A stretch of 64,000 nucleotides of DNA, taken from assembly GCA_963965975.1 (NCBI GenBank), contig OZ014418.1, forward strand, positions 7,543,275-7,607,274, written 5' to 3'. The translations under genes and the position numbers were made by a program. Positions 2,847 to 30,335 of the stretch are shown here, piece by piece (within the stretch, counting starts at the first letter, position 1; each line of letters starts with the position of its first letter). The notes below the pieces were generated by a model, which was not told the DNA's origin, ran no database searches, and saw nothing but the letters and a program-made list of their open reading frames with translations. Source of the stretch: Xestospongia bergquistia. Lineage: Eukaryota; Porifera; Demospongiae; Haplosclerida; Petrosiidae.

Positions 2847-2954
2847 TGTTTATTCTAGATAATGCCCACCTAACTCCTCCTTACCCCACCCTCTCTCCTC
2901 CCTGTCACATGATTATCAGGGCGTGGCCTTTCCTGTTTTCTCAAAGAGTCGAAA

Positions 2955-4020
2955 ATGTCTTCGCCAAAAGACGGAAAATCTTCAAAGCAACTTGAAAAGG
3001 CTGTTTATGATGAAATTTTGAAAGGACAGATATCACAATTAAGACTACAAGTATGTAATATATTATATGATATAATAAAAGTTATCATTATCTTTACAGG
3101 ATATTCAAGATATCAAACAAGTCAATTTAATTAGACAAGATGAGTTGATGGAACAAAACGAATCAGTGAAAGTGATCAGAAAGACTTGGCATTCTTCAGT
3201 AGAGATGTGTAAACAATATAATTTACCATCTACTACTAGAGAACTGCTGCTCTCTAAGAGCCAGTCATGTTCTGGTAAAGTAACCAAACAGACAAATGTT
3301 AAAGTTGATAAAATGATGTTGTGTGACACATTAGCTGGCTGGGATGAAGGTGATGAGAATAAAAAAGCGGAAACAATGTCATTACAACAACTCTCTTTAC
3401 TATCCAAGCATAAGGAATTAGTGAACTACAATACTATTATGACACAACTCCAAATACCACCTTGTGAATATAAAGAAAGTACTAATGAAGAAAATCCCGA
3501 GGGATCATTTGATAAAGTGTTCTCCCAGTATATGGAAGGCCTGATGAGTCAAGAAACCAATGCTATTGATGATAAAGATGATGATATTTCAAAGACGTCA
3601 CTTATCATTACTGAGAGCAGATACAATCTTTTTGATAATGATACTGTTAGTATTGAGTCACGACTGAATGATACTCATTATAACAAGCAAAATGAGATAT
3701 TGGATCAGATCAGAGTTGCTATTGCTTGTAACACTGATTTTGAGAGCAGGCCATGTGTCTCTATAGTACCTGCATTATCACTTAAGCATGATGATGTCCT
3801 GTTATTAGATGGAATGAAGTTGAATAGATATCTATTCTTTTCGAAATGCTTAAAGACTTTGTCACTATTACATCCTTTACAAGATGATGATGGCTGTACT
3901 ACTGATACAAAACAAAGAACAAAACTTAGTAAATTTACAAGAGAAGTTAGAGCTAAAATGAGGAAAAGAGCAGAAGAAAAAAGACTAGAACTTTGTGATT
4001 CCTCGGATGACAATATGTGA
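2955..4020 (+). CDS. Array gene A1: unrecognised 338-aa protein
   Basis: Two exons, 2955-3050 and 3100-4020, joined in phase 0 across a 49-bp GT-AG intron. ATG 2955 (MSSPKDGKSSKQLEK) is the first start after a CT-rich stretch with little AT. The N-terminal half is predicted helical (DEILKGQISQLRLQ, KQVNLIRQDELMEQNESVKV). A LAGWDEGDE motif lies near residue 120. The C-terminal 150 residues contain DDKDDDISKTSLI and end in a basic-acidic tail (TREVRAKMRKRAEEKR, then DSSDDNM). That same tail is also fused to the TPR region of A2, and a decayed copy lies at 15190-15560. I do not recognise the family. The tail could be a nuclear or docking module, which is a guess. Confidence 0.7.
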
Positions 4021-4161
4021 AACGTGTGTGGTGTTCTTGCTGTATATATATATGTTATAATTAATTTATTAGTAGTAAAATATAATAACGTGGTGTCATC
4101 ACAAATGAAGTAAAAATCCCAGACCCGGGCGTGGGGTTTGGCGCAGTTGGCAATTGTCGAA

Positions 4162-6688
4162 ATGGATGAGTCTCATTCAAAAACTAATTGTGAAAGTGAC
4201 GATTCAATCAATAGTTTTTTGTACTTTTCATATCAAACAATTATTTGTCCTCAAGAGAGAGACATAAAGTCGTTTGTTTCTCCTGTAGTTGAAGTCGCTG
4301 ATAGAAATGATCGCGACTGGAAGCCGTTTTCTGATAAAGTAAATAAACAGTTGTTGAAATTTTTAATATATATAATTATAATCCATAAACATCTTTGTGG
4401 CAAAAATTATTAATTTTGTTTTTGGTAGATGTTAACTGATCATATGACAGAAATTCAAGATCCTTCAGATGATACAAGAAATGATGAACATGGAGGCACA
4501 TATATATTAAATGATGGTGTTCACACAGAAAAAGTTACAGATAAACAAATACAGTTATCTGGATCTGTGAGTGAATAAAATTTAATTTAAATTTATTTGG
4601 TGATTTGTATTATAGAAATCAAAAGATGATAAGTTGACTATTCTGTTTACTACTCATGATCATTTCCAAAAGAGTAAATCAATTGAAGTGGTAGCTATAG
4701 ACAAAGTACAGAATTTGAAAATAGCTAATTTAGCTACTGATATTTTTAAACCTACATCAGATTATAACTTGGAAAGCTGTGAACAAATAATTGATCAAAA
4801 AATTGAGGGCAAGGATGACTTGTGCTGTGACACTTCATTAAGATCAGAAAACTCAATAGAGCAAAACAAGCAAAGTACAAGTCAGTCACATCAACAAAGT
4901 GAAACTACCTGTTATTTGATGACGGAGAATATGCTATCTGCTCATGAGCCTTCAGCTGAACAATGCATCAATCAAGCTATACAGGGAGCATTATCTCAGT
5001 TTCAGCAACTGTATGAAGCAATGTATTTCTCTGAAATGGAGAGCATGTTATTAAGTTGTTTCCAATTGTCCAAATTACCACAAGAAATTGCTCTGATATC
5101 ATTTGGAATTGGTCTTGCATGTTATGAGCAGAAAAAGTATGAAGATGCCACTCAACATTTACGAGAGAGTGAAGGAAAATTACAAGAGTATTATCATCTT
5201 GATCCTGACCCCACCCACCTTAATGACATATCTTATTGTAGAGTATATATGGGAGAAGTAGAAAGTGCTCAGAGTCATTATTCTGCTGCTGTCGAACATT
5301 TCCTTATAGCAATGAAGACACACCAAATACAACCTTCAGTTTTTCAACAAAGTTTTCAGTTACCAGAACTCTCATTATGTGCTAAAACATCAAAACTTGC
5401 TTTAGCTCTTTGCTGTGTTAACCAAGTAGTAGATTCTGAGAGATACTACAGGAAAGCTTTAGTATGTAATGATGCCACACCTTCTGATATTATATCTGTT
5501 AAAACTAGTCTTGGTAACTTGTTACACAGTGTAGGAGATCATGAGAGAGCTGTTGAAGAATATGTTGCTGCTATTAAGAAAGCTGAAATAGAAGATGATG
5601 CTCTCTCTCAAGCTTGGACTCATGGTAACCTTGGTAACACATATCTCAGCCTTGGTAAGTATGAACGAGGTCTTTATCATCTCCAGAAATCACTTGAGCT
5701 TACAATAATTTATGAACCTACTCCATCAGCCATTAGTCGAGCCCTTAACAATCTAGGTACAGCCTATCAAGCTCTGTCTAAGTTAGATGAAGCTGAAAGC
5801 TATTATGATGAAGCTTTATCTCAAGCCATATTTGGTAATGATCTGATTGGTCAAGCTCGGGCCTACGGTAATATTGGTAACCTGTACATGTTAGAGAAGA
5901 ATCAAGAGAAAGCTATACCACATTATAGTGAAGTCTTGAGACTTAGTAAAGATCGTTCAACAGTTTATGTTGCTTATCATAATCGAGGTTGTGCATTCTT
6001 TGATCTTGCAGAAAAGAGAAAGAGAGAGCAACTTATTAATCGTCCAAGAAGAGAATATGAGTACATAGCATGGGGTCCTAATACTAATGACCTTGAATGT
6101 AAGCATTATCAAGATGAGTTAGAAGATAATATTGTCCAATTATACAAGCAGGGTCTCTCTGATTTCAAAAAGGTCATTAAAAATTATGATCAAATATCTT
6201 GTGATTATAATGAAAGGCCTCCTGAGCCAGAACAATTTGATAATGTGTTTGGTATTGATGATAAAGATGATGATATTTCAAAGACATCACTGATCTTTAC
6301 TGAGAGCAAATACAATCTATTTGATAATGATACTGTTAGTATTGAGTCACTACTGAATGATACTCATTATAATAGACAAAAGAAGGTACTGGATCAGATC
6401 AAAGTAACTGTATCTTGTAATGACTGTAAGACTGACAGACATGGTGTTTATAAGTTACCATCAGTGAAAGTGGAGAGTGTTCCAGTTTTAATAGGTCAGG
6501 CTAAATTGGTATTTGGGAAAAGTTTTAAAACCACTTTGTCACTAGTACATACACCTGATGATATATGTAGTGACATTAAACAACGAACAAAGCTCAGTAC
6601 AAGAACAAGAGAAGTTAGAGCTAGAGCGAGGAGAAGAGCAGAAGAAAAAAGAAAAGAACTTCGTGACTCATCAGATGAAGATACGTAA
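4162..6688 (+). CDS. Array gene A2: TPR protein lacking CHAT, with A1-type tail
   Basis: Exons 4162-4338, 4429-4566 and 4616-6688 join in phase 0 to about 795 aa. The start is ATG 4162 (MDESHSKTNCES). After a variable N-terminus, residues about 230-630 form six to seven TPR-like repeats, with signatures such as THGNLGNTYLSLGKYERGL, ALNNLGTAYQALSKLDEA and AYGNIGNLYMLEKNQEKA. These are nearly identical to the TPRs of A3 and A5. In A3 and A5 the next segment (HESTFANINSSAKGLNLF) leads into the CHAT domain. Here the frame leaves at KKVIKNYD and continues after a short link into the DDKDDDISKTSL to DSSDEDT tail of A1. The protein is therefore TPR plus A1 tail with no protease. It could act as a regulator or decoy of the TPR-CHAT proteins (inference). 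Confidence 0.8.
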
Positions 6689-6783
6689 TTTAATTTAATT
6701 TAATTTAATTAGTTTGTCATAATTGCAAATGCTGACTTTGCACTGCTTGGGTGGGGTATGACTATGAATAGTCCAGATCTACG

Positions 6784-9700
6784 ATGGAGAAGAACGAGCT
6801 GTTGTTTAAGTTTATAGTTATACTTGATGACCTTGACTCAAAATTAAAAGAAGATTCATCAATTGTTTTATTATCACTGAAGGTTATATCTGAATTCTTT
6901 GATGAAATTGTCCAATTAAAGCCCAAAGATTCGGCTATTGATGAATTACCATTTGCTCCTATTGAAAAACGTATTGGTCATTTTCTGAAGCTGTTTTCTG
7001 ATGTTTTTGATAATATTGCCTTCATTTTACCTAGAGAATTAAAATATGAAATTTATCAATTGGCTGGTGAAACTCACTCTTTCAAACTGTTTTCTTCATA
7101 TGATTTGAAATTCCTTTCTCAAATAACATCAAAAGTTTCAAAGTGTACAATTAATAATGAACCTGCTGAAAACATTGTATCTAAAGTGGCAGCAATTATG
7201 GCATGCAGAAATATTTTAATGCAAAAAAAAAGATTCCAATCTATGATATTGGTAAGAATATTTATACTTTATTAATTTGGCACACTGACTATTTGTCAAG
7301 CAGGAAGTCCATACTTTGTTTACATATAGTTATTGTTAAGGGGGTGGGAGAGTCAGTGGAACTGCCTTAATTTATGGTGAATACATGACCGTAATGAGAC
7401 TATTGATACTGATTGATGGTGGGCAATATTATGAATCAACATTGACACTATATAATTTGCCTTTGCAATTGAATTGATAGTATGGTTTTAATACTTAAAA
7501 TAACTGGATATAAATTACATGTTATCCATTGATGTTAACTATGTTTACTTAGCTCTTTTAAAAACATTGAGTTTATAAATATTCTTTGAAAATGTATATG
7601 AAAATTATGATTGAGAAGCCATGTGATATTTGAGAAAAGACACAAAATAGTATCATCATTATAGTAGTACTTACAAGAAGTAATCGAGAATTCTAAATTA
7701 ATTCCTGATGATTAACAATAATAATGTAGATGGCTTTAAAGCACTAGCAATGTTTTTATATCCTTCATGAAATACTTTTGCATTTTAGGATAACATGCTG
7801 ACTGAATTACAGTCAATGATGACCCGTTCCAATGAACATACAAGTTCAATAATAGATGAAAATCAGCCAATTGCTCGGAGTTCTCCTAATTTATTTAGAA
7901 GTGCATCAAACAGAACTTCTTATAGACAAAACAACACACAATCACATCCTCGAACATCTGTTACTGAAGGCAACTCAGGCTCTGTCGCTGACACTTCGTT
8001 AAGTTCAGAAGAAGTGAAAAGACCTAAGCAAGGAAAACAATCTTCAAGTCCGTGTAAGAAGGTAAATGATGCAGAAGTTTTTACAGAAGGAGATAATAAA
8101 ACAAAAGTCAACAAAAACAAGTTAAGTCATAATATTGCTGCTTCTAATGAATGGATGTGTGAGTCTGTACTTAAGGATAATTCTAAAATTGAAGAAATTG
8201 GTGAACATAAATGTATTCAGGATATATTGTATCAGGTACAGGAACTATATGAAGCTATGTATTTCTCTGAAATGGAAAATATGTTATCTGAGTATCGTCA
8301 ATTATGTCAATCACCACGAGAAATTGCTCTGGTATCATTTGGAATTGGTCTTGTATGTTATGAGCAGAAAAAGTATGAAGATGCCACTCAACATTTACAA
8401 GAGAGTGAAGGAAAGTTACAAGAGTATTATCATCTTGATCCTAACCCCACCCACCTTAATGACATATCTTATTGTAGAGTATATATGGGAGAAGTAGAAA
8501 GTGCTCAGAGTCATTATTCTGCTGCTGTTGGTCATTTTCCTGTAGCAATGAAGACACATCAATCACGAAACCCAGTTCTTCAGTTACCAGAACTCTCATT
8601 ATCTGCTAAAACATCAAAACTTGCTTTAGCTCTTCGTTGTGATAACCAAGTAGTAGATTCTGAGAGATACTACAGAAAAGCTTTATTATGTAATGATGCC
8701 ACACCTTCTGATATTATATCTGCTAAAACTAGTCTTGGTAACTTGTTACACAGTGTAGGAGATCATGAGAGAGCTGTTGAAGAATATGTTGCTGCTATTG
8801 AGAAAGCTGAAGTTGAAAATGATTTTCTCTCTCAAGCCTGGACTCATGGTAACCTTGGTAACACATATCTCAGTCTTGGTAAATATGAGCGAGGTCTTCA
8901 TCATCTCCAGAAATCTCTTGACCTTACAACAATTCATGAACCTACTCCATCAGCCATTTGTCGAGCCCTTAACAATCTTGGTAAAGCCTATCAAGCTTTA
9001 TCTAAGTTAGATGAAGCTAAAAGCTATTATGATGAAGCTTTATCTCAAGCCATATTTGGTAATGATCTGATTGGTCAAGCTCGGGCCTATGGTAATATTG
9101 GTAATCTGTATATGTTACAGAAGAATCAGGAGAGAGCTATACCACATTATAGTGAAGTATTGAGACTTAGTAAAGATCGTTCAACAGTTTATGTTGCTTA
9201 TCATAATCGAGGTTGTGCATTCTTTGATCTTGCAGAAAAGAGAAAAAAAGAGCAATTTAATAATTGTCCAAGGAGAGAATATCAGTACATTGCTTGGGGT
9301 CCTAATACTAGTGACCTTGAATCTAAGCATTATCAAGATGAGTTAGAAGATAATATTGTCCAATTATACAAGCAGGGTCTTTCTGATTTAAAAAAGGTTA
9401 TCAAAAATCACGAGAGTACATTTGCTAATATCAATTCATCTGCAAAAGGTCTCAATTTATTTGTATGTTTCTTTGAAGCTAATGCTAAAACCTTTTTACG
9501 AGCTCAAGACTGTGCTTTTAATCTAAATGACCATCATCTTGCACTACTATTTGCTGAGCAATGTCGTTCTCGCACACTTGGGGAACTACTCTTGGAACGA
9601 AAGAAGCACCATCTTAAAGTTCCATTTCGAGCTCCACTTACTCTTGATCAAGTGGTATCAATTTTACGTCTTCAAGATCCTTTTGTTCCTGTGGTAATGT

Positions 9701-12177
9701 TATCGTACACGGGAACCCGTCTCCTAGTCTGGGTCTTGGTCTTTGATGGTGAGGAAGTATCAATGAATATGATTGAGCAGGAGCGAAATGATGATCTATT
9801 TGAGGGTAAGTCCCTAAATATGTATCTTTGTTATAGTATTAATGAACTGTTAACTGGTGATTTGGAACTTTATGGTAAGGAAAAGAAAGCTTCCAATAAC
9901 ATTAAGGAAGACAAACCATCTATGTCTCTTGAGTTAAGTGATAGTGAAGATGAGGCAAAAGAAAGGAAAGATGTTGACAAAGGCTCTCTAAATACATCAC
10001 CTGTTACTTCTCACTCCAAAGAAGATATTATAACACCATTGTATAAAATGGTTACTGAACCTGTACAGGCTATTATTAAAGGGATGACTCCAGATGGCCA
10101 ATGTCCTCCAAAAAAGATCATTCTTATTCCTGATAGCAGTACAAAAATGATACCATTTCCAGCTCTCAGTGATCGTGACAGTGAAATATATTTTGGAGAT
10201 ACTTATAGTCTTCAATTTGCCCCTTCATTGCTTGTACTTGGAGTGATGACCCAGACCACACCCACTGTTATTAAAATCCCTTCTGACTGTCATACCATAT
10301 GTATTGTTGGTGACCCATATACACCTCCATTTAAATTTAAAGATGAAGAATGGATATTAGGTCCATTACCTCATGCAAGAAAAGAAGCTCAAAGTGTTGG
10401 GCATTACATGAAGACCACACCCCTAATTGATGAAGAACCAACCAAGGAAATTGTTTTGTCTAGACTTCGTCAATCCAAACTCATCCATTTAGCTACACAT
10501 GGCTCAGCTAGTCATGCTTTCATTGTTCTAGCTGGTACACGCCAGTCCACTATGGTATCAACACATTTTATAGAGAATGAAAATCATATCTTACTTTATG
10601 CTTCTGATGTTGAGTCTATCCAGTTACAACCATCACTTGTTGTATTAAGTTCATGTGATTCTGGTCGTGGAGTATTTAAAGGTGATGATGTTCAAGGAAT
10701 GGCACGAGCATTTCTTTTGTCTGGAGCACAGGCAGTGCTAACATCATTGTGGAAAGTTCCTGATCAAAGTGGCTGTTATTTTATGCAATATTTCTATCGA
10801 TATATGTTAGATGGATATACCAGTAGTGAAGCATTACAAAAAGCAAGTCTTAACATTCGTGGTTGCCTAACGTTCTCACAATACATTCATTGGGGTGGTT
10901 ATCAGCTAACAGGGAAAGATGTTAAGATAGAAATTGAAGTTACACCTGAAGATAAGTCTGTATGGAGTAAACTAGGTCAAACTTGTTCTCCTTTCCCTCG
11001 TCTTGATAAACTATTGTTACTAGAGAAGAATCTTTTGTCATTTGATTCTCAATATATCCAGGTAATGTTATTTTTATATCATTTATTATTATGTTATAGT
11101 GTACACTTTTATATTGTAGGTGATCAATGGTGCTGGTGGTGCAGATATATCTGAATCTGTCATTGATTTTATTGCTAAACATCATAGTTGCTTCAACTCT
11201 ATATTTTGGATAAATGCTAGCCATCCTCTTAATATTACTACTACTGTTAAGGATGTGATGGAGGTAAGAATTTGTAACACAAAGCTCTATTAGGTATATT
11301 CATAGTGCAAGCTCAGTTGACTTAATTGTTATTATTGACATACTTGTCCATAGTGTAGAGTATATTTATGTGATGCTTAGCTAAGCAAGACATGATTTTT
11401 TAATATAAAAATGTGTTGGTTGTACAGTAATGTCAGCATATGATGTTTTGTTGTTTGCAGGTCCTATCAGAACTGGCTTTAGTCATTGTAGATGATGTCA
11501 CAGTGGATTATCTGCCACATCTTAAGCCTCTCTGTCAACATTATGATGTTAAAGTGATTTTACTGACACATTCTCCTACTGACAATATGAGTACACAAAT
11601 TGATGCAGTATTACATAGAGGTACATCTTCAATAATATCAGTATCATCTCTTACTGACCTACAAGTGACACAGAGATTAGTGTATACTTTAGTTAGTCAG
11701 TTTAACCTCACTCCAAATAAATCTGATCAACAAGTTATTTCTGACCTCTCATCATTATGTTGTGGTTCTCCTGTAATATTACGTCTAATGGAGTCCTTAG
11801 TGACACACTGTATGAGAAAGGAGAATGATAGCTTAACAATGTGCCTTAACCTAATAGAAGAGAAGATGAATGGAGTGTTAATATCTCAGGTTGATGTAGA
11901 TCAGATTCAAGATAATGTTGATCATCTTAACATTCGACCTTCATTAGTAATCTCCAGTATATTGGGTTGTCTGATGGATATTGGGAAAATAACAACAGCT
12001 GGTCGACTTTTCTTACATTGTTTATCTTCAATACGAGGAATTCCTTTACCTCTTGAGGTTATCACTGGTATAAAATGTGAAATAGAGAGCTGTTGTACTG
12101 TGACAATGTCAATAATTGAAGAGTTACAACAATCTAACTGTTTATGTACATACCCTTCTCCTGTAATGATTCTTTAA
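6784..12177 (+). CDS. Array gene A3: TPR - CHAT protease - NB-ARC-like protein
   Basis: Exons 6784-7251, 7789-11061, 11120-11263 and 11461-12177, all phase 0, give about 1533 aa. Residues 1-156 are helical and unrecognised. TPRs span about 300-700. A caspase-like CHAT peptidase spans about 770-1210, with candidate catalytic His1060 (LATHGSASH) and Cys1112 (LSSCDSGRG), followed by the family-typical ARAFLLSGAQAVLTSLWKV. An acidic Ser/Lys-rich linker interrupts CHAT at about 9880-10020. From residue 1248 comes an NB-ARC-like module: a degenerate P-loop GAGGADIS (no GKT), IFWINAS, Walker B ALVIVDDV, VILLTHS, a GSP motif (CCGSPVILRLM), and a winged-helix-like end. The frame stops at 12177 after a 13-bp deletion relative to A5. 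Alternatively a 47-bp intron (12163-12209) could join it to A4. The family resembles protease-STAND immune proteins. Confidence 0.85.
7252..7788 (+). other. First intron of A3 (537 bp)
   Basis: It begins GTAAGAAT and ends TTTTAG, joining two phase-0 exons. The sequence is AT-rich. I see no coding segment or repeat in it. It is much longer than most introns here. Confidence 0.7.
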
Positions 12178-14142
12178 TCACCAATAATAAATTATTCATT
12201 GTTCCTGAGATAATAGGTGATGCCGTGTGGAGTCATTTAACTACTGATGATGATCATATTATAGCAATTGCCATTACAATTAAAAGTTTAAACCATTTAT
12301 TACTTCAATATTTAAGTAATGGTCTTATGTCTGTCTGCTGTTTTCCTGCAGTTGTGGATTTATTAAAACATACTTTTGAATTTTTTCTATTTTTTTCAGA
12401 ACATAAAGTAGAAAGTCATTTATATTATGCACAGTGCTATGCTGATATTATAGTTTTAGAAGAACTTTGCAAATTGGTATGGGTGGAAGACCGCCATGCA
12501 AATGTACTTCCAGAAAAAAAGATGGCTCAGTCTTATGTGTCATCTGACAGCCATGTCAAAGTACCTTCTTCTAATGTATCATCTGATATTCATTTCAATT
12601 TACGAAAGGAAAAGACACTATCATTTGACAGCCTTGCCAATCTACCTCAAGAAATGGAGAAAACCCTAGTCTTTACATTAAATGACAATGTACCTCAAGA
12701 AATAGAGAAAACCACAGCCTTTGACAATGTACCTCAAGAAATGGAGAAAACCACAGTCTTTACATCAAATGACAATGTACCTCAAGAAATGGAGAAAACC
12801 ACAGCCTTTACATCAAATGACAATGTACCTCAAGAAATGGAGAAAACCCCAGTCTTTACATCAAATGACAATGTACCTCAAGAAATGGAGAAAACAACAG
12901 TCTTTACATCAAATGACACTGTACCTCAAGAAACAAAGAAAACCCCAGAAGGTGACAACCATACTTGTGATTATTTGGGTGAAGAAAATAATGCTGCAGG
13001 TGACCTCGATGGTATCATATATTCAATTGTTCCTGAAATACATCCGGATATTCAAAATTTATTGTGTCAGTCACAATTACTTTATGATGCATTCTATTAC
13101 TCAGAGATGGAGTGCATATTAACAGAGTGTCTCCAGCTGTGTACTATACCACAAGAAACTGCTCTAGTATCATTTGGTATTGGTCTTGCATGTTATGAAC
13201 AGAAGAAGTATGAAGAAGCTATTCAACATTTACAAGAGAGTGAAGGGAAATTGCAAGAATGCTATCGTCTTGATCCTGACCCCACCCACCTTAGTGAGAT
13301 ATCTTATTGTAGAGTGTATATGGGAGAAGTAGAGATTGCTCAGAGTCATTATTCTGCTGCTGTTGATCATTTTCATGTAGCATTGAAGACACATCAATCA
13401 CACGTCCCAGTTATTCAAAAATGTTTTCAGTTACCAGAACTCTCATTATCTGCTAAAACATTAAAACTTGCTTTAGCTCTTCGTTGTAATAATCAAGTAG
13501 CAGATTCTGAGAGATACTATAGAAAAGCTTTATTATGTGATGATGCTACTCTAATACCAGAAGACATGTCTGTATTGAGTAAACTAAGTCAAGGGTGTTG
13601 TTATGGAGATATTGTTTGTCTAGCTTCAAGTGAGGATGAAAACGAAAGTTACCAAACTAGGCCAATTTATAAGTCACTCTGGTTTTCAGAGGTGCATGTA
13701 GATAAGTATTTAAAATTGTCATGTACCGATTATTTTATTGAATTCCATGCTTTAATTAAGGCGATGTATTACAATGCACGCAGAGCTTCATTCTGTTTTT
13801 ATGAATGTTATTTTCTATTTCTCAGGTGCTACTACTTTTTTGGATGAACATGCTTTACTTAGCCTATTAGTGGATATTGACAGCAAGTGGTATGAAATAG
13901 GTTTAAGTTTAAAACTTAAATACAATTTTTTACATGGTTTGAATGGTGAACGATTTAGCAACACTGTCAAACTATCTTATGTAATTAATAAGTGGATTAC
14001 TAGTGCTGATTCACAAGATATTACATGGGAGACAATAATATCTGCCATTGAGGGGCCTTTTGTTGATGATAAACAGATAAGTAGGAAAATACATAAATAT
14101 CTCACTGATCAACTTAAGAATGGTGGGCCGACAATGTCCTGA
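12144..14142 (+). CDS. Array gene A4: repeats - TPR - CHAT remnant - Death domain
   Basis: The best model joins 12144-13629 to 13826-14142 (donor GTGAGG, acceptor TTTCTCAG, phase 1), about 600 aa. The 5' end is uncertain. The first residues (KLFIVPEIIGDAVWSHLTT) are the C-terminus of an NB-ARC-like module homologous to A5, in the frame that A3 loses. Residues about 162-269 are 16-aa repeats of the DNVPQEMEKTTVFTSN type. TPR residues (YYSEMECILTECLQLC to SERYYRKALLCDDAT) follow. The chain then jumps to IPEDMSVLSKLSQGC, the segment that follows CHAT in A3 and A5, so about 2.2 kb including the catalytic core is missing. The last exon encodes a Death-fold domain: DIDSKWYEIGLSLKL, VINKWITSADSQDITWETI, then KIHKYL. 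It may be an independent gene or the 3' part of A3. Confidence 0.6.
12628..12950 (+). repeat. 48-bp coding minisatellite in A4
   Basis: About seven units encode DNVPQEMEK plus 4-7 variable residues (TTVFTSN, TTAFTSN, TPVFTSN). One unit is shortened to 13 residues, and the length change preserves the reading frame. The same 16-residue unit, more diverged, builds the long array in A5. The protein segment is likely disordered. Confidence 0.9.
13826..14142 (+). other. Death-domain exon of A4
   Basis: The exon reads LDEHALLSLLVDIDSKWYEI, then LKLKYNFLHGL, KLSYVINKWITS, ITWETIISAIEGP and ISRKIHKYLTDQ. The spaced W...IG..L...L...W......TW..I pattern matches Death-superfamily six-helix domains. No other array member carries such an exon within this window. 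Confidence 0.65.
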
Positions 14143-14284
14143 GCTCAATTTTTTGACAGACTATTAATAACTATGTTTTAATTGTTGTATTAAAATACTT
14201 GTCAATCATAAACCCATATAATATATTTATTTTCCCCTTTTTCATTAAAAAATTATAGTCTGTTCCTTCTTTTGATAGACCCTC

Positions 14285-14439
14285 TTGTATATGTTCCTCA
14301 ACTCTATCAACAGATCTGAGAATGTTAGGCTAATGTAATGTTTTAAGATTAAAGTCTTAAATCTAGTTTGTTTGATCTGATAATAAGTATATGTAAATAT
14401 AAAATTGTTAATAGTGGGGTTACCTCATTATTGGATTTG
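14285..14439 (-). pseudogene. Decayed SCYL1 5' exon fragment, proximal part
   Basis: This stretch aligns by eye with 2424-2580 of SCYL1 (CCTCAACTC, ATCAACAGATCTGAGAATGTTAGG, and GGGGTTACCTCATTATTGGATTTGTTA). Deletions break the [16 protein letters not shown] exon. It continues beyond the inserted element at 15051. Confidence 0.75.
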
Positions 14440-14443
14440 TTAA

Positions 14444-15046
14444 CCTCGCTGTGCGTGGGCGCATAGCGAGTAGTGTGTATGTGTGTGTCTGTTACCCAGG
14501 CAAATGGCTTTGAACTGCTTTAACTCGGCAAATACGGCACTGGTAGCCACCAAACTATAGTGGATAGTAGCAAAACTTCTGCACTTCTTAAGAATACTGC
14601 CAAAAGGAGTGTCAAACGAACAAAAAGCTTTAAAAGTCTGAAAAACCTTTGAAAAAAGCACAGCTTTCAGTGAAGACTCGAAAATTCAATAAAAATCTCC
14701 TGCATACAGCTTATGACATTTTCTAACTTTTTAAAGTGAGAATTTTTGCAAAAATACTTTTTTGGAAAGTTATGACAGTTTTACTAACTTTTGGCAGTTA
14801 TCTTTGTCGATACATTGAGCGCGAACTAAAAATGCTAGCACCATAGCTGTCATTGGGAAATGACTAACTTTTACTGAGAAGTTGGAAAGTATTGGACCTT
14901 TTGTCAATTAGAGTGCAAAGTACCCAGTAGACGCACTAAAGTTTTTTCCCTTTGATTGAAAAAAATGCTGAGTCATCAACAATCATCTTGCGCATCACGT
15001 GACTCGAGGAGGCTAAAGAACGCCTCTGGATAAGACTGCAGCGAGG
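14444..15046. mobile_element. 603-bp non-autonomous DNA transposon with TTAA target duplication
   Basis: The segment is flanked by TTAA on both sides (14440-14443 and 15047-15050). It has inverted ends CCTCGCTG and CAGCGAGG, and interrupts the SCYL1 fragment exactly where the parental sequence is continuous. TTAA target duplication is typical of the piggyBac superfamily. The perfect terminal inverted repeat is only 8 bp. The left end contains a further palindrome (CTCGCT to AGCGAG at 14445-14469). It has a higher GC content than its surroundings and no transposase frame, so it is a MITE-like element. Confidence 0.75.
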
Positions 15047-15050
15047 TTAA

Positions 15051-15180
15051 GCACTTTAGTACATTTCATTAGGAAAGTGCTAGCACTAGATCATTGTTTG
15101 ACTTATAATAAACAAAGATTATCATAGTTTTTAATAATGATATTAAGAGGATAATAATATCATTTCATGATAATGTGATT
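15051..15180 (-). pseudogene. Decayed SCYL1 5' exon fragment, distal part
   Basis: TAGCACTAGATCATTGTTTG followed by an AATAAACAAAG stretch corresponds to 2594-2640 of SCYL1 (the PNNDPVL exon and its adjoining intron). It is the continuation of the fragment left of the transposable element. No open frame remains. Confidence 0.65.
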
Positions 15181-15189
15181 ATTGGTAGA

Positions 15190-15562
15190 GATGCATATTA
15201 AAATAAACAATACTGTACTGACAGACTGATTTTGAAGACTGGAAAACCACTGGCAGTTGGAACTATGTCATATAACAAAGCAGCTGGTTGGGATGAAGGT
15301 CATTTTATCACAGGACATTACTGAAAACCAGTGTTTATTACTGATGTAATTATCCTGTTTAAACATTTCACTAAAAAAATCTTAAGTTGCTTTTATAGAC
15401 AATAATATATTGCATCAGAATGGTTATAGTTTGTAATGACTTTGGATGCAAACATGATATCTCTACATTACTATCACCAGTGAAGGTTGAAGTATTAGGA
15501 GTAGAAATCCGAGATAGAATGACGGGAAGAGCTGAAGAAAAAAACCATGATGAAAACATTTG
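15190..15562 (+). pseudogene. Decayed copy of array gene A1
   Basis: Reading + frames in pieces gives NKAAGWDEGHF (compare LAGWDEGDE of A1), then CNDFGCKHDISTLLSPVKVE and DRMTGRAEEKNHDENI with a stop. The latter match the tails of A2 (CNDCKTDRHGVYKLPSVKVE, RRRAEEKRKELRDSSDEDT) and A1. Stops and deletions separate the pieces. Its position after a SCYL1 fragment mirrors the intact SCYL1 to A1 order at 2400-4020. Confidence 0.75.
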
Positions 15563-15652
15563 ACTCTATTTTAATTTGGGGGAGGAGAGTTAAAACTTGT
15601 CGCGTCATCTGGGCGGGGACTTAGTTATTGCTGTGGCGACACACCGAGAGTG

Positions 15653-18600
15653 ATGGTCTTAAAGTACGCTATTATAGCACAAAGAGTCGGTAAAAAAGAT
15701 TCTCATTCAGAGTATTACTTGGAGTATGATACTATTAATCAATATTTTAAGCAAGTGCAAGTCAACATTGGTGAACCACAACATGGAACTAAACAAATTA
15801 CAGAAAAATCAGTTAACACAGACCATAGCAAGAAGTATAGAAACCATATGAGAAACAAAACTGCTATACATCCATCAACATATCCACTGAAAGTAATCAA
15901 TTTCATTCAGAAAGTAATCAAAAGGCAACAGAAACACTATTCCAGTTATTACTATGATTTAATGACAAAATTTCGTGATACACATGCTGTCCTTTCTACT
16001 GTAGTCCCTTCAGAAATATTAGATGTATGTTTATGTTGCTATATGTTGTGTTAAATTTATATACCTGTTATTTAAACAGCTGAAGTCTTGTAATGATGTC
16101 AAACTGGATAGTAGCACTTCTTATCAAGAAGTAAACTCACATAAAATGTGTCCTTTTACAATTACTGTTATTATTATAGATACTTATACCGATCCAACAA
16201 TTATTGAAGGAATATCAACATTTAAATAGGATCTTAACTTTTTCAAATTTGAAGATAGAACACACACAGGTATGTTTCTAACATGCATATCATCCTAGTT
16301 ATTACCATTATTATCATCTATCTATTTCTTTATTCATGTCTTGTGACTTAGATAGCATCCAAGGTGGTGACTTAGCTTATTGATAATATTCATAGTCGTA
16401 GTATAATACCTAATATAAATTTGTGAAAGCTAATTAAGTCAAAGTAACTATTAGTAAGCATTTTACATTGCGTGCCAGGCATTCAGTCATCTTTTCAGAC
16501 CATGTGGTATATATATATATTATTATGTCCACTTTCCCAATTTTTATATATTGTGATATGCAACTTTGAGAGCAACAAAATGAAAGTAAATCAGTATATA
16601 TAACAAGCAATGAATTTATTAAACCTAACCATGAGTGTAGAGTGTGACTGATAATGCTTGAAGCTTCTTGCTAGCTTGCTTTTCTTACAATCTTTGTAGC
16701 TCTAGTCAATGTTTCACTATAATATTGGTATCTTCCAAAACAATTATAGGATAATTTTTCAATTACAATCTTGTTAGAAGGGTTTCTTTTATCATAAACC
16801 TCATTGTCATGCACTAATTCATTGAAGCTCTGTTATGATGGATTTACCATTCAAGCCTTTCCAAGTATAGTAAGTATCATCTCTATAACTTACATAGCAA
16901 GTAACATTATAGAAGACGATTTTTGGCATCTGTCACAAATATTTGGTTGCTAAAAACCTACCACATATGAATTATGACTATCTAAAAAGCTATAGCTGGG
17001 TAACACATATATAGAAACCAAACTACAGTAACCTCACTTACACATAAGTGCAAAATAGAGCTGTGAATAATATGAATAGCATGAAATTGTGTTGAATAGG
17101 TATCTTAATATATGTCATTTAGGGTATGTTATTGATGTCAAAGAACCTAGCTGTTTTTGAGGGAGTGCCCATAGAAATTGTAAGTTTTTAACAGGTACAT
17201 GTATGTTAGTTTAATGCATGTCATGTTAGGTTTTGTTATGGGAGCTAAAATGGTCAAATCAACAGCATTCTCATGATTACATGCTAACTTCTTCAAAGAA
17301 AGAATTTTTTATACAAGTAAATATCTAGCAACCATGCCATGTAATGTATTTGTGATATAATTGGAATTTTTCATTAATGCTACAAAAATGTCCAGATTTT
17401 TTTGTAATATTTTGACTTTTTTCAAGTGGAATAATTAATTATGTATGTATGTTTCAATTTGGCAGAGCTTATTATATATAATTAATGTATATTATTTAGA
17501 TTTCAACAATAATACTGGATCTTCAAGCCAGGAAATTAGACAAGATAACTTGTGAGGAATATATTGATAAGCGTTTTTATGTGCTATATCAATATAATAT
17601 TGACAGTCTCCTTAATAACACAGATCAGATATCCCTGTCACATACTTCTACACTTATTTTGAAGAACTTTTATGAAGCCTTAATTTTCTTTAAATATCTG
17701 CTCAATCATCTACAAGTAGCAGTTTTTATTGTAGCATTATATCTTAATGTAAACCAGTGTTTCCAAGGAGAAGATGGCAATTTCCCCTCTTTGGAGGGCA
17801 ATGTTCATGAAGATGACTGTTCAGATGAAATGTTTCCATCTTATGTGTTGGACCGAAGTGATACCAGTGTACCTCAACAAACTCTAGCTTGTATGTCAAA
17901 TAATAATGTACCTAAAGAAATGGAGAAAACCTCAGCTTTTATGTCATATGAAGAAGTAACTCAAAAAAAGAAGAAAAACCCTGATTTTGTGAAAAAAGTC
18001 AATGCATTTTCAAAAAATGAGAAAATTCCAGTCTTTGAGTCAAATAACAATGTACCTCAAGAAATGGAGAGAGAAACAGCCTCTACATTAAGTGATGATG
18101 TACTTCATGAAATGGAGAAAACCCCAGCCTCTGCATCAAATGACAATGTACATCATGAAATGGAGATAACTGATACCTTTACTTTAAATGACAGTGTACC
18201 TCAAGAAATGGAGAGAAAAACAGCCTCGACATTAAGTGATGATGTACTTCATGAAATGGAGAAAATCCCAGCCTCTGCATCGAATGACAATGTACATCAT
18301 AAAATGGAGATAACTGATACCTTTACTTTAAATGACAGTGTACCTCAAGAAATGGAGAAAAAAATAGCCTCGACATTAAGTGGTGATATACTTCATGAAA
18401 TGGAGAAAACCCCAGCCTCTGCATCGAATGACAATGTACATCATAAAATGGAGATAACTGATACCTTTACTTTAAATGACAGTGTACCTCAAGAAATGGA
18501 GAGAAAAACAGCCTCGACATTAAGTGATGATGTACTTCATGAAATGGAGAAAATCCCAGCCTCTGCATCGAATGACAATGTACATCATAAAATGGAGATA

Positions 18601-21600
18601 ACTGATACCTTTACTTTAAATGACAGTGTACCTCAAGAAATGGAGAAAAAAATAGCCTCGACATTAAGTGGTGATATACTTCATGAAATGGAGAAAACCC
18701 CAGCCTCTGCATCAAATGACAATGTACATCATGAAATGGAGATAACTGATACCTTTACTTTAAATGACAGTGTACCTCAAGAAATGGAGAAAAATGCAGC
18801 CTCGACATTAAGTGATGATGTACCTCATGAAATGGAGAAAACCCCAGCCTCTGCATCGAATGACAATGTACATCATAAAATGGAGATAACTGATACCTTT
18901 ACTTTAAATGACAGTGTACCTCAAGAAATGGAGAAAAAAATAGCCTCGACATTAAGTGGTGATATACTTCATGAAATGGAGAAAACCCCAGCCTCTGCAT
19001 CGAATGACAATGTACATCATAAAATGGAGATAACTGATACCTTTACTTTAAATGACAGTGTACCTCAAGAAATGGAGAAAAATGTAGCCTCGACATTAAG
19101 TGATGATGTACCTCAAGAAATGGAGAAAAACGCAGCAGGTGTCAACCATACTTGTGATTATTTGGGTGAAGAAAATAATGTTACAGGTGACCTCCATTGT
19201 ATTTCATGTTCAATTATTGCTGAGGTACATCCAGATATTCAGAATTTATTGTGTCAGTCACAATTACTTTATGATGCATTGTATTACTCAGAGATGGAGT
19301 GCATATTAACAGAATGTCTCCAGCTGTGTACTATACCACAAGAAACTGCTCTAGTATCATTTGGTATTGGTCTTGCATGTTATGAACAGAAGAAGTATGA
19401 AGAAGCTATTCAACATTTACAAGAAAGCGAAGGGAAATTGCAAGAATGCTATCGTCTTGATCCTGATCCCACCCACCTTAGTGAGATATCTTATTGTAGA
19501 GTGTATATGGGAGAAGTAGAGATTGCTCAGAGTCATTATTCTGCTGCTGTTGATCATTTTCATGTAGCAGTAGAGACACATCAATCACACATCCCAGTTA
19601 TTCAAATATCTTTTCAGTTATCAAAACTCTCATTATCTGCTAAAACATCAAAACTTGCTTTAGCTCTTCGTTGTGCCAATCAAGTAGCAGATTCTGAGAG
19701 ATACTATAGAAAAGCTTTATTATGTAATGATGCCACACCTTCTGATATTATATCTGCTAAAACTAGTCTTGGTAACTTGTTACACAGTGTAGGAGATCAT
19801 GAGAGAGCTGTTGAAGAATATATTGCTGCTATTGAGAAAGCTGAAGTTGAAAATGATGCTCTTTCTCAAGCTTGGACTCATGGTAACCTTGGTAACACAT
19901 ACCTCAGCCTTGGTAAGTATGAACAAGGTCTTTATTATCTCCAGAAATCACTTGAGCTTACAACAATTCATGAACCTACTCCATCAGCTATTAGTCGAGC
20001 CCTTAACAATCTAGGTACAGCTTATCAAGCTTTGTCTAAATTAGATGAAGCTGAAAGCTATTATGATGAAGCTTTATCTCAAGCCATATTTGGTAATGAT
20101 CAGATTGGTCAAGCTCGGGCCTACGGTAATATAGGTAATCTGTACATGTTACAGAAGAATCAAGAGAGAGCTATACCACATTATAGTGAAGTATTGAGAC
20201 TTAGTAAAGATCGTTCAACAGTTTATGTTGCTTATCATAATCGAGGTTGTGCATTCTTTGATCTTGCAGAAAAGAGAAAGAGAGAGCAATTTAGTAATTG
20301 TCCAAGAAGAGAATATCAGTACATAGCATGGGGTCCTAATACTAGTGACCTTGAATGTAAGCATTATCAAGATGAGTTAGAAGATAATATTGTCCAATTA
20401 TACAAGCAGGGTCTCTCGGATTTTAAAAAGGTCATCAAAAATCATGAGAGTACATTTACTAATATCAATTCATCTGCAAAAGGTCTCAATTTATTTGTAT
20501 GTCTCTTTGAAGCTAATGCTAAAACCTTCTTACGAGCTCAAGACTGTGCTTTTAATCTAAATGACCATCATCTTGCCTTACTATTTGCTGAGCAATGTCG
20601 TTCTCGCACACTTGGGGAACTACTCTTGCAACGAAAAATGCATCAGCTTAAAGTTCCATTTCGAGCTCCACTTACTCTTGATCAGGTGGTATCAATTTTA
20701 CGTCTTCAAGATCCTTTTGTTCCTGTGGTAATGTTATCGTACACAGGAACTCGTCTCCTAGTCTGGGTCTTGGTCTTTGATGGTAAGGAAGTATCAATGA
20801 ATATGATTGAGCAGGAGCCAAATGATGATCTATTTGAGGGTAAGTCCCTGGATATGTATCTTCGTTATAGCATTAATGAGCTGTTAACGGGTGATTTGGA
20901 ACTTTATGGTGAGGAAAAGAAAGCTTCCAATAAAATTAAGGATGACAAACAATCTATGTCTCTTGAGGAGGACAGTAATAAGTTAAGTGATAGTGAAGAT
21001 GAGGCCAAAGAAAAGAAAGATGACAAAGGCTCTTTTAATGCGTCACCTGTTACTTCTCACTCCAAAGAAGATATTTTGACACGATTATATAAAATAGTTA
21101 TTGAACCAGTACAGGCTATTATTAAGGGGATGACTCCAGATAGCCAATGTCCTCTGAAAAAGATCATTCTTATTCCTGATAGCAGTACAAAAATGATACC
21201 ATTTCCAGCTCTCAGTGATCGAAACAATGAAATATATTTTGGAGATACTTATGCTCTTCAATTTGCCCCTTCACTGCTTGTACTTGGAGTGATGGCTCAG
21301 ACCACACCCACTGTTATTAAAATCTCTTCTGATTGTCGTACCATATGTATTGTTGGTGACCCATATACACCTCCATTTAAATTTAAAGATGAAAAATGGA
21401 TATTAGGTCCATTACCTCATGCAAGAAGAGAAGCTCAAAGTGTTGGGCATTACATGAAGACCACACCCCTCATTGATGAAGAACCAACAAAAGAAGTTGT
21501 TTTGTCTAGACTTCGTCAAGCCAAACTCATCCATTTAGCTACACATGGTTCAGCTAGTCATGCTTTCATTGTTCTAGCTGGTACACGCTACAATATTCAG

Positions 21601-23561
21601 TCCACTATGGTATCAACACGTTTTATAGAGAATGAAAATCGTATCTTACTTTATGCTTCTGATGTAGAGTCTATCCAGTTACAACCATCACTTGTTGTAT
21701 TAAGTTCATGTGATTCTGGTCGTGGAGTATTTAAAGGTGATGATGTTCAAGGAATGGCACGAGCATTTCTTCTCTCTGGAGCACAGGCAGTGCTAACATC
21801 ATTGTGGAAAGTTCCTGATCAAAGTGGTTGTTATTTTATGCAGTATTTCTATCGATATATGTTAGATGGATATACTAGCAGTGAAGCATTACAAAAAGCA
21901 AGTCTTAGCATTCGTGGTTGCCTAATGTTCTCACAATACATTCATTGGGGAGGTTATCAGCTAACAGGAAAAGATGTCAAGATAGAAATTGAAGTTATAC
22001 CTGAAGACAAGTCTGTATGGAGTAATCTAGGTCGAACTTGTTCTCCTTTCCCTCGTCTTGATAAACTATTGTTACTAGAGAAGAATCTTTTGTCATTTGA
22101 TTATCAATATATCCAGGTAATTTATTTTATATTATTTATTATAACATTATAGTGTACACTTTTATATTATAGGTGATCAATGGTGCTGGTGGTGCAGATA
22201 TATCTGAACCTGTCATTGATTTTATTGCTAAACATCATAGTTGCTTTAACTCTATATTTTGGATAAATGCTAGCCATCCTCTTAATATTACTACTACTGT
22301 TAAGGATGTGATGGAGGTAAGAATTTGTAACACAAAGCTCTATTAGGTATTTTCATAGTGCAAGCTCAGTTGACTTAATTGCTATTATTTGCATATTTGT
22401 CCCTAGTGTAGAGTACATTCATGCTTAGCTAAACAAGACATGAATTTTTAATATTAAACATGGGATTGTATAGCAATGTCAGCATATGATGTTTTATGTT
22501 GTTTGCAGGTACTCACAGAACCTGCTCTAGTTATTGTAGATGATGTCACAGTGGATTGTCTGCCACATCTTAACCCTCTCTGTCAACATTATGATGTTAA
22601 AATGATTTTACTAACGCATTCTCCTACTGATAATATGAGTGCACAAATTGATGCAGTCTTACATAGAGGTACATCTCCAATAATATCAGTATCATCTCTT
22701 ACTGACCTACAAGTAACACAGAGATTGGTGTATACTTTAGTTAGTCAATTTAATCTCACTCCAAATAAATCTGATCAACGAGTTGTTTCTGACCTCACAT
22801 CATTATGCTGTGGTTCTCCTGTAATATTACGTCTAATGGAATCCTTGATGACACACTGTATGACAAAGGAGAATGATAGCTTAACAATGTGCCTTAACCT
22901 AATAGAAGAGAAGATGGATGGAGCACTAATATCTCAAGTTGACAGGAATCAGATTCAAGATAATGTTGATAATCTTAATATTCAACCTTCATTAGTAATC
23001 TCCAGTATATTGGGTTGTCTGATGGATATTGGGAGAATATCAACAGCTAGTCGCACTCTTCTAAACTGTTTATCTTCAATACGAGGAATTCCTTTACCTC
23101 TTGAGGTTATCACAGGTATAAAATGTGAAATAGAGAGCTGTTATACTGTGACAACATCGATAATTGAAGAGTTAAAACAATCTAACTGCTTATGTACATA
23201 CCCTTCTCCTGTAATTAGTTCTCATAATGACCCTTTGATGATCAATAGTAAATTGTTCATTGTTCCTGACATAATAGGTGATGCTGTGTGGAGTCATTTA
23301 ACTACTGATGATGATCGTATTACAGCAATTGCTATTACAACTAAAAGTTTAAACCATTTATCACTTCAATATGCAAACAACATTCCTATATCAACCTGTT
23401 ATCTTCCAGCAATTGTGGATTCTTTAAAACAATCTTGTGACAATCTCCTGTTAAATAATCTTGTACAAGAACCTCAATTAGAAGACCACTTGCATTATGC
23501 ACAGTGCTATGCTGATGTTATAGCTTTAGAAGAAATTGTAGAAGCACTAGTTAGAACGTGA
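15653..23561 (+). CDS. Array gene A5: repeat-rich TPR - CHAT protease - NB-ARC-like protein
   Basis: Exons 15653-16024, 16080-16130, 16180-16269, 17500-22116, 22173-22316 and 22509-23561, all phase 0 with GT-AG borders, give about 2108 aa. The N-terminus is helical and unlike that of A3. Residues about 352-714 are seven higher-order repeats of 48 aa. TPRs span about 746-1150 (THGNLGNTYLSLGKYEQGL, ALNNLGTAYQALSKLDEA). CHAT spans about 1230-1670 with His1520 (LATHGSASH) and Cys1575 (LSSCDSGRG). The NB-ARC-like module starts at 1711 with a degenerate P-loop GAGGADIS, then Walker B ALVIVDDV (Asp1769-1770), CCGSPVILRLM and a C-terminal helical part ending EIVEALVRT. It is the most complete array member. 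It is probably a cytosolic sensor-protease; substrate unknown. The join between 16269 and 17500 is the least certain. Confidence 0.85.
16270..17499 (+). other. Long AT-rich intron of A5 (1230 bp)
   Basis: It begins GTATGTTT and ends ATTATTTAG. It contains a short TATATATATAT run near 16509. I see no coding exon longer than about 15 bp, no repeat unit and no obvious element. A small unrecognised exon cannot be excluded. Confidence 0.5.
18043..19131 (+). repeat. 144-bp higher-order repeat array in A5
   Basis: Three diverged 48-bp sub-units (DSVPQEMERKTASTLS, DDVLHEMEKIPASASN, DNVHHKMEITDTFTLN) form a 144-bp unit repeated seven times, with a partial eighth. Successive ACTTTAAATGACAGTGTACC starts lie at 18181, 18325 and 18469. 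Alternate units carry MERKTAS and MEKKIAS, suggesting an even larger 288-bp period. The frame is kept throughout. Confidence 0.95.
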
Positions 23562-30023: not shown

Positions 30024-30335
30024 AGTTGTTGTTGCTGTAGAAGCGTATGCTGTACAAGCTGGGCTTCTTTTGCAGTTTAGTGATGACAGTTGTAGTTGAA
30101 ACATCACAAGTGGGTGAGGTTCGGTTACTTGACCCGACGCTCTGCCAAGAATTGGTATAAAGCAATTTGCGGTTAGAAACTGACACAAACAAACCAATGG
30201 AACTCTAGTTACCTTTTTATAAAATAAATACCTGTAATTGTTACTTTATAGGATTCAGAGAAAATAAGCTTAAGTTCGTAGTACATTATATTAACCCATG
30301 TGTACGGACGTATAAGTTACTAGCGCGTATTTGTT

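What the first reader, a model, noticed from the sequence alone, without database searches (positions are those of the whole stretch)
2955..23561. A tandem TPR - CHAT protease - NB-ARC-like gene array with Death-domain and protease-less variants
Five array genes reuse the same parts in different combinations: TPR alone with a foreign tail (A2), TPR-CHAT-NB-ARC-like (A3), repeats-TPR-Death (A4), repeats-TPR-CHAT-NB-ARC-like (A5). CHAT is a caspase/separase-clan peptidase, and both complete copies keep the His (LATHG) and Cys (SSCDSG) residues. A protease inside a chain with an NB-ARC-like module and beside a Death-domain homologue looks like a sensor-protease system for cell death or immunity, comparable in logic to CHAT peptidases of prokaryotic defence. 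The domain order CHAT followed by an NB-ARC-like module in an animal is the most novel element here. Function is inferred.
Basis: partly seen in the sequence, partly recalled or inferred. Interest (0 to 1): 0.88.

Follow-up and report, generated by a model that had tools for sequence, protein, structure and literature searches.

The report
Animal protease genes with dead NB-ARC
A cluster of duplicated animal genes encodes proteins that join a repeat-based binding region, a caspase-like protease domain and a worn-out relative of the switch domain of immune receptors, an arrangement that looks like a one-chain sensor and protease but whose job is untested.

Summary
The core observation holds. 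Two copies (A3, A5) encode TPR repeats, then a CHAT peptidase domain (Pfam 155 and 162 bits; cut-off 24) with the His-Cys pair intact, then about 325 and 437 further residues. Profile-profile comparison matches that tail to NB-ARC (score 42.9; best of 200 shuffles 24.2) and not to NACHT, AAA_16 or receiver domains (12-15). The NB-ARC is degenerate: its Walker A position reads GAGGADIS, without GK[ST], in both copies. Yet the coding is constrained (post-CHAT dN/dS 0.27, 95% 0.16-0.46).

A4 has no 5' end of its own; its frame runs out of A3's tail. A3 has a 13-nt deletion that truncates it unless an intron hides it. A2's tail is related to A1. Both structure predictions were too weak to use.

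Animal TPR-CHAT families (human TTC28, coral expansions) and fungal NLRs carrying CHAT are published; TPR-CHAT-pseudo-NB-ARC in an animal was not found in my searches. Best reading: a sensor-protease whose dead NB-ARC is a nucleotide-independent assembly or restraint module. Function is inferred; no expression data were available.

The parts
2955..4020 (+). A1: two exons (2955-3050, 3100-4020), 338 aa, no Pfam family at E<=1 in its large exon; its C-terminal part is related to A2's tail
4162..6688 (+). A2: exons 4162-4338, 4429-4566, 4616-6688 (795 aa); TPR region, no CHAT, C-terminal ~176 aa homologous to A1
6784..12177 (+). A3: exons 6784-7251, 7789-11061, 11120-11263, 11461-12177 (1533 aa); TPR-CHAT-degenerate NB-ARC; C-terminus cut short by a 13-nt deletion relative to A5
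10033..10914 (+). CHAT domain of A3; His codon 10498-10500, Cys codon 10654-10656
11120..11775 (+). NB-ARC-like module of A3 (two exons, one intron between); P-loop position 11129-11152 reads GAGGADIS; Walker B-like 11479-11499; GLPL-like 11761-11775
12138..14142 (+). A4: open frame 12138-13847 that begins in A3's tail and runs into 48-nt repeats and a partial TPR block; a last exon probably begins near 13826 and ends 14142 (its donor site is undetermined); Death claim not confirmed
12638..12948 (+). 48-nt coding repeat array in A4, 6.7 copies
14286..15168 (.). two pieces related to the flank upstream of A1 (14286-14442 to 2415-2575, 78.5%; 15075-15168 to 2590-2677, 71.3%), split by other sequence: suggests that the duplicated unit reached beyond the array
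15653..23561 (+). A5: exons 15653-16024 (uncertain), 17500-22116, 22173-22316, 22509-23561 (2061 aa); repeats-TPR-CHAT-degenerate NB-ARC-further C-terminal region
17886..19136 (+). 48-nt coding repeat array in A5, 26.1 copies, with a 144-nt unit over 18042-19136 (7.6 copies, 95% matches)
21070..21969 (+). CHAT domain of A5; His codon 21544-21546, Cys codon 21709-21711
22173..22823 (+). NB-ARC-like module of A5 (two exons, one intron between); P-loop position 22182-22205 reads GAGGADIS; Walker B-like 22527-22547; GLPL-like 22809-22823

Best explanation
The array is a tandem expansion of TPR-CHAT genes in an animal (probably a sponge; organism inferred). Shown by sequence: A3 and A5 join TPR repeats, a CHAT peptidase domain with an intact His-Cys pair, and a degenerate NB-ARC-derived module that has lost the Walker A lysine but whose coding is constrained. 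Inferred: the TPR superhelix captures a ligand or substrate; the NB-ARC-derived part works without nucleotide hydrolysis, as a restraint on or an assembly platform for the protease; ligand binding frees or clusters CHAT, which then cleaves a partner protein, most plausibly in a cell-death or immune response. Copies without CHAT (A2, and A4 as far as it can be read) could act as decoys or regulators by sharing the same TPRs.
For: CHAT at 155.1 and 162.4 bits against a cut-off of 24; His and Cys invariant with 8 bacterial CHATs. Post-CHAT region against 22 cyanobacterial NB-ARC segments: score 42.9, P 2.6e-5, probability 74.6, one collinear alignment over query 36-201; best of 200 column shuffles 24.2, reversed query 16.1. 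Same query against NACHT 14.8, AAA_16 12.3, receiver 13.3. The two exons on their own hit consecutive parts of the NB-ARC profile (11-49 and 89-190). dN/dS A3 against A5: NB-ARC-like 0.20, CHAT 0.29, TPR 0.26; 282 post-CHAT codons, bootstrap median 0.27, 95% 0.16-0.46, 0 of 400 bootstraps at or above 1. Precedents, each seen as passages: a TPR-bearing CHAT protease activates a gasdermin in Podospora (PMC12881547); TPR-CHAT of Craspase is a protease switched on by non-self RNA (PMC9729208); catalytically inactive STAND modules occur in bacterial conflict systems (PMC7159879).
Against: No expression, substrate or localisation data. NB-ARC misses Pfam's cut-off in both copies. The hhalign probability is 75%, and the query alignment holds two near-identical sequences (Neff 1.04). 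The P-loop exon alone is weak (19.4, P 0.009). The AlphaFold model of the module was unusable (pLDDT 34.0) and Foldseek gave no match at E<=0.001. No Death domain found. No gasdermin or other substrate was sought; Pfam scans covered selected open frames only. A TTC28 role in the human cell cycle is reported (PMC9145168, passages), not immunity.
Confidence: 0.5

Rival explanations
1. An ordinary TTC28-type scaffold or regulatory protein with no immune role; the array is a lineage-specific expansion and the NB-ARC-derived tail is an old structural appendage.
For: TPR followed by CHAT is a conserved metazoan architecture, with 1 or 2 copies in most non-anthozoan animals and large expansions in corals (PMC12314368, passages); human TTC28 is tied to the cell cycle (PMC9145168, passages).
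Against: Both catalytic-type residues are kept; the tail is an NB-ARC relative, a module typical of STAND switches; tandem, chimeric, rearranging arrays are more typical of immune than housekeeping genes (inference).
Confidence: 0.3
2. The NB-ARC-like module is a working nucleotide switch with a non-canonical P-loop, so these are true NLR-like receptors with a built-in protease.
For: Walker B-like LVIVDDV and a GLPL-like CGSPV are kept; non-canonical P-loops are recorded in fungal and plant NLRs (PMC4986451, passages).
Against: Both the glycine and the lysine of GK[ST] are gone in both copies. All 22 profile rows have GK[ST], but rows were picked by that motif, so this is no test.
Confidence: 0.1
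3. A decaying array: one working gene (A5) and a set of fragments, with no system-level meaning in the protease-less variants.
For: A3 has a 13-nt deletion and weaker constraint behind it, dN/dS 0.59 over 60 and 0.73 over 99 codons; A2's TPR has dN/dS 0.48 against A5 and 0.59 against A3; A4 lacks a 5' end; pieces of a decayed copy of the upstream flank lie between A4 and A5.
Against: The large frames of A2, A3 and A5 are open over 690, 1121 and 1550 codons; CHAT and NB-ARC-like parts of A3 against A5 show dN/dS 0.2-0.3, though with two sequences this could reflect constraint on one copy only.
Confidence: 0.25
4. The exon joining is wrong: CHAT and NB-ARC-like exons belong to separate genes.
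For: No transcript evidence was available.
Against: GT-AG, phase-0 junctions at the same places in both copies; the two exons match consecutive parts of one NB-ARC profile; same strand, with gaps of only 58 and 56 nt between the CHAT exon and the P-loop-like exon.
Confidence: 0.05

Closest known systems
Metazoan TPR-CHAT proteins (human TTC28; coral TPR-CHAT expansions, PMC12314368 and PMC9145168)
   Same: N-terminal TPR stretch followed by one CHAT domain; tandem expansion by duplication
   Different: No NB-ARC-derived module behind CHAT is mentioned in the passages seen; those expansions are in corals
Fungal NLRs and NLR-like proteins carrying CHAT (PMC10197012, PMC12881547)
   Same: CHAT protease and a STAND NTPase relative in one chain
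   Different: In fungi the protease is described as the N-terminal effector module of an NLR; here TPRs lie before CHAT, the NB-ARC relative comes behind it and its Walker A is lost; animal host
Bacterial TPR-CHAT of Craspase (PMC9729208) and cyanobacterial CHAT proteins
   Same: CHAT with the conserved His-Cys pair, TPR-CHAT order in the annotated ones; 27-35% identity over CHAT in the 80 loci
   Different: In 80 of 80 loci read, the frame ends 18-125 residues behind the Cys motif; 0 frames with both CHAT motifs and a canonical P-loop motif in 119 loci
Bacterial inactive STAND (iSTAND) systems (PMC7159879)
   Same: A STAND module retained although catalytically inactive
   Different: Third component of a MoxR-vWA system (passage), not fused to TPR-CHAT

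Membership tests
CHAT peptidase (PF12770) | Pfam score over the curated cut-off | tested here: met
   155.1 (A3) and 162.4 (A5) bits against 24
CHAT peptidase (PF12770) | His-Cys catalytic pair | tested here: met
   Invariant columns H166 and C221 in 10 rows; codons located
CHAT peptidase (PF12770) | Proteolytic activity | not testable with these tools
   needs an assay
TPR proteins | Several TPR units over cut-off | tested here: met
   A2, A3, A5: TPR_1 at 89.1-92.3 bits against 27.8; A4 partial: of its TPR models only TPR_2 passes, 28.8 against 27
NB-ARC (PF00931) | Pfam score over the curated cut-off | tested here: not met
   A3 10.0 bits against 23.5, A5 no match
NB-ARC (PF00931) | Profile-level homology specific to NB-ARC | tested here: met
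   score 42.9, probability 74.6; best of 200 shuffles 24.2; NACHT 14.8, AAA_16 12.3, receiver 13.3
NB-ARC (PF00931) | Walker A GxxGxGK[ST] | tested here: not met
   GAGGADIS in A3 and A5
NB-ARC (PF00931) | P-loop NTPase fold in a structure model | tested here: inconclusive
   pLDDT 34.0, no Foldseek match at E<=0.001
NLR receptor | NTPase followed by C-terminal sensor repeats (LRR, WD40, ANK, TPR) | tested here: not met
   no Pfam repeat behind the NB-ARC-like part at E<=10
Death domain (A4) | Match to Death in Pfam or solved structures | tested here: not met
   none in Pfam at E<=10; PDB matches unrelated
Death domain (A4) | Six-helix death fold | tested here: inconclusive
   five helices at pLDDT 48.6, no Foldseek match at E<=0.001

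The most novel reading that the evidence does not exclude
An animal lineage keeps a one-chain 'contracted' cell-death receptor: a TPR sensor, a caspase-clan protease and a catalytically dead NB-ARC platform fused in one protein, so that receptor, platform and protease that other animals spread over Apaf-1- or NLR-type assemblies plus caspases are a single polypeptide, with protease-less paralogues as built-in decoys. The dead NB-ARC would assemble or restrain the protease without ATP.
Probability: 0.25. Interest if true: 0.85.

Novelty: new variant of a known kind. Interest (0 to 1): 0.55.

Why it matters
CHAT proteases activate gasdermins or other substrates in fungi and bacteria (PMC12881547, PMC9729208), while I know of no described substrate for an animal CHAT (recalled, not searched as such). 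An animal CHAT with both catalytic-type residues, physically joined to a relative of the NLR/Apaf-1 switch domain that has lost its ATP-binding lysine but is still constrained, would link the microbial and animal cell-death toolkits in one molecule and gives a concrete protein in which to test whether animal CHAT domains cleave anything.

Tried and rejected
Rejected: Death domain in A4 as an established fact. Rejected: A4 as a self-standing gene with its own 5' region; its frame 12138-13847 starts in the A3 tail. Considered: A3 and A4 as one gene through a small intron that would swallow the 13-nt deletion; 18 GT-AG pairs of 40-250 nt keep the frame, for example 12146-12216 (71 nt) and 12163-12209 (47 nt); undecidable without RNA. 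Considered: the post-CHAT part as a receiver domain, because Foldseek's weak top rows included receiver domains; profile comparison does not support it (13.3).

Led nowhere: 4 scans of viral contigs gave no relative; the post-CHAT module has no tblastn match in the plasmid collection at E<=10 and no phmmer match in PDB at E<=10; a search for Death domains in bacterial genomes, meant to build a profile, found 1 weak match in 292 genomes, so A4 was never compared with a Death profile of my own; no whole genome was held for the window. The first exon of A3 has no Pfam or PDB match at E<=10.

Rows dropped: the 30 NB-ARC loci gave 23 segments that carried the P-loop motif used to cut them out and were long enough; one ABC transporter segment (L098) was removed, 22 were used. 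Selecting rows by GK[ST] means the profile cannot show natural loss of it. In one search one CHAT frame per locus was read by motif; by its coordinates it is in some loci a different CHAT frame from the one that brought the locus in, and some frames are cut by the locus end. A first alignment for the fold misplaced part of the small A3 exon and was replaced by a two-row one.
Full report
What is there. The stretch 2955-23561 holds, all on the + strand, A1, A2, A3, A4 and A5. Gene models built from the sequence give A1 338 aa, A2 795 aa, A3 1533 aa and A5 2061 aa (lengths), with GT-AG introns in phase 0. Repeat and tblastn searches show them as parts reused: the TPR block is 77.4% identical in A2/A5 and 87.8% in A3/A5, and A4 carries the first part of it (93.8% over 161 codons against A5); A2 ends in a tail related to A1 (50.7% over 207 columns; 88% over 171 nt). 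Forkhead (E 6.5e-40), a DED-like frame (E 5e-7, 30.3 bits, under the cut-off of 35.9) and RING-type frames in the same window fit an animal; that it is a sponge is inferred.

CHAT. A3 and A5 match CHAT at 155.1 and 162.4 bits (cut-off 24). In an alignment with 8 bacterial CHATs the His of LATHG and the Cys of SSCDSG are invariant. In the plasmid collection 195 records match; of the 40 best rows shown 31 are cyanobacterial, and the 40 lie at 23.0-32.0% identity, while over all 195 the commonest names are Pseudosulfitobacter (46), Nostoc (32) and Streptomyces (25). All 80 were read by motif: the frame ends 18-125 residues behind the Cys motif in 80 of 80. A3 and A5 go on for about 325 and 437 residues behind CHAT. 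No frame of 250 or more residues in 119 loci held both CHAT motifs and a canonical P-loop motif (106 CHAT frames, 38 P-loop frames, 0 both). The 80 loci are a similarity-ranked, cyanobacteria-rich sample, so this does not exclude such fusions elsewhere in bacteria.

The post-CHAT module. Plain searches hardly find it: Pfam gives NB-ARC for A3 at E 0.51 and nothing for A5, PDB sequences nothing, plasmids nothing. Profile-profile comparison does. A profile of 22 NB-ARC segments from cyanobacterial genomes aligns with A5/A3 over query 36-201 and template 9-190, score 42.9, P 2.6e-5, probability 74.6; the query side has only two near-identical rows (Neff 1.04). Controls: 200 column shuffles reach at most 24.2; the reversed query 16.1; three other parts of A5 give 13.0, 14.5 and 22.3, the highest being the CHAT part; A5 alone gives 42.0. 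Profiles of NACHT (25 segments), AAA_16 (24) and receiver domains (40) built in the same way score 14.8, 12.3 and 13.3. The P-loop-like exon alone hits template 11-49 weakly (19.4, P 0.009) and the last exon alone hits 89-190 (31.6, P 0.00095), so the exon order matches the profile order. The Walker A position reads GAGGADIS in both copies; Walker B-like LVIVDDV and GLPL-like CGSPV remain. All 22 rows have GxxGxGK[ST], but they were chosen by it. The label 'dead' for nucleotide binding is inferred from the lost lysine.

Selection. Between A3 and A5, dN/dS is 0.26 (TPR), 0.31 (linker before CHAT), 0.29 (CHAT), 0.20 (NB-ARC-like, 165 codons) and 0.34 (C-terminal part, 121 codons); the 41-codon linker behind CHAT is 1.17 at dN 0.04 and dS 0.04. 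For the TPR of A2 it is 0.48 (A5) and 0.59 (A3). Over 282 codons from the P-loop-like exon to the deletion the bootstrap median is 0.27 (95% 0.16-0.46; 0 of 400 at or above 1). The two introns are 91.1 and 92.1% identical. Two sequences cannot tell on which branch the constraint acted.

A3, A4 and the history of the array. A3 lacks 13 nt present in A5 near 12163, which brings a stop at 12177; the frame homologous to A5 continues as the open frame 12138-13847 and passes without a break into the 48-nt repeats and TPR block called A4. Behind the deletion dN/dS is 0.59-0.73. A4 therefore has no 5' exons or intergenic space of its own. Either A3 and A4 were fused by a deletion and are now one transcription unit (a small intron could remove the lesion; 18 frame-keeping GT-AG pairs), or A3 is truncated and A4 is a fragment or starts inside. 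Between A4 and A5 lie two pieces related to the flank upstream of A1 (78.5% over 163 columns and 71.3% over 94), so the duplicated unit probably extended beyond the TPR genes.

Death domain. A4's last exon gave no Pfam match at E<=10 in two calls, only unrelated PDB matches, and a five-helix model at pLDDT 48.6 with no Foldseek match at E<=0.001. HMMER's filters drop most weak matches, so a divergent Death domain is not excluded.

Structure. The two prediction jobs went to A4's last exon (single sequence) and to the A5 module read through its intron with the A3 last exon as second row. The latter reached pLDDT 34.0; it neither supports nor refutes an NTPase fold. TPR-CHAT itself was not folded.

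What is known, each paper seen as passages only. In corals TPR-CHAT genes number 276 and 304 in two Acropora species while most animals outside the anthozoans have 1 or 2 (PMC12314368); TTC28 is the human member (PMC9145168). [quoted passage not shown] PMC12881547). TPR-CHAT of Craspase is an RNA-activated protease (PMC9729208). Inactive STAND modules are described in bacterial conflict systems (PMC7159879), non-canonical P-loops in fungal and plant NLRs (PMC4986451). A recent sponge NLR census (PMC12909245) does not contain the word CHAT. Searches pairing CHAT with sponge and NB-ARC, with Amphimedon, with NLR and coral, and with Porifera, and Amphimedon with NB-ARC and death domain (6 papers, 2 of them opened), showed me no report of this architecture; the library holds open-licence papers only and not every listed paper was opened.

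Verdict. Real architecture at sequence level, new variant of a known kind, with a mechanism that is plausible and untested. The most telling fact is that an NB-ARC relative without its ATP-site lysine is kept directly behind an apparently active caspase-clan domain in two copies.

Noticed in passing
window 44553-45155, - strand: Frame with a death effector domain-like match (DED, E 5e-7, 30.3 bits, cut-off 35.9), about 21 kb downstream of the array.
   Followed up: no
window 29370-30245, - strand: RING matches and weak TRAF-type zinc finger matches, a possible TRAF-like gene near the array.
   Followed up: no
window 17886-19136: Coding repeat of 48 nt (26.1 copies) with a 144-nt higher-order unit at 95% match in A5, against 6.7 copies in A4: a candidate length-polymorphic protein region.
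   Followed up: partly
window 14286-15168: Two pieces related to the flank upstream of A1 (2415-2677) lie between A4 and A5, separated by other sequence.
   Followed up: partly
window 12100-12520: 13-nt deletion at the A3-A4 junction lies inside a possible small intron whose removal would keep one long frame.
   Followed up: partly
window 25990-26598, - strand; window 1-2900: An open frame on the other strand downstream, and by eye a probable multi-exon gene on the other strand upstream; neither identified.
   Followed up: no
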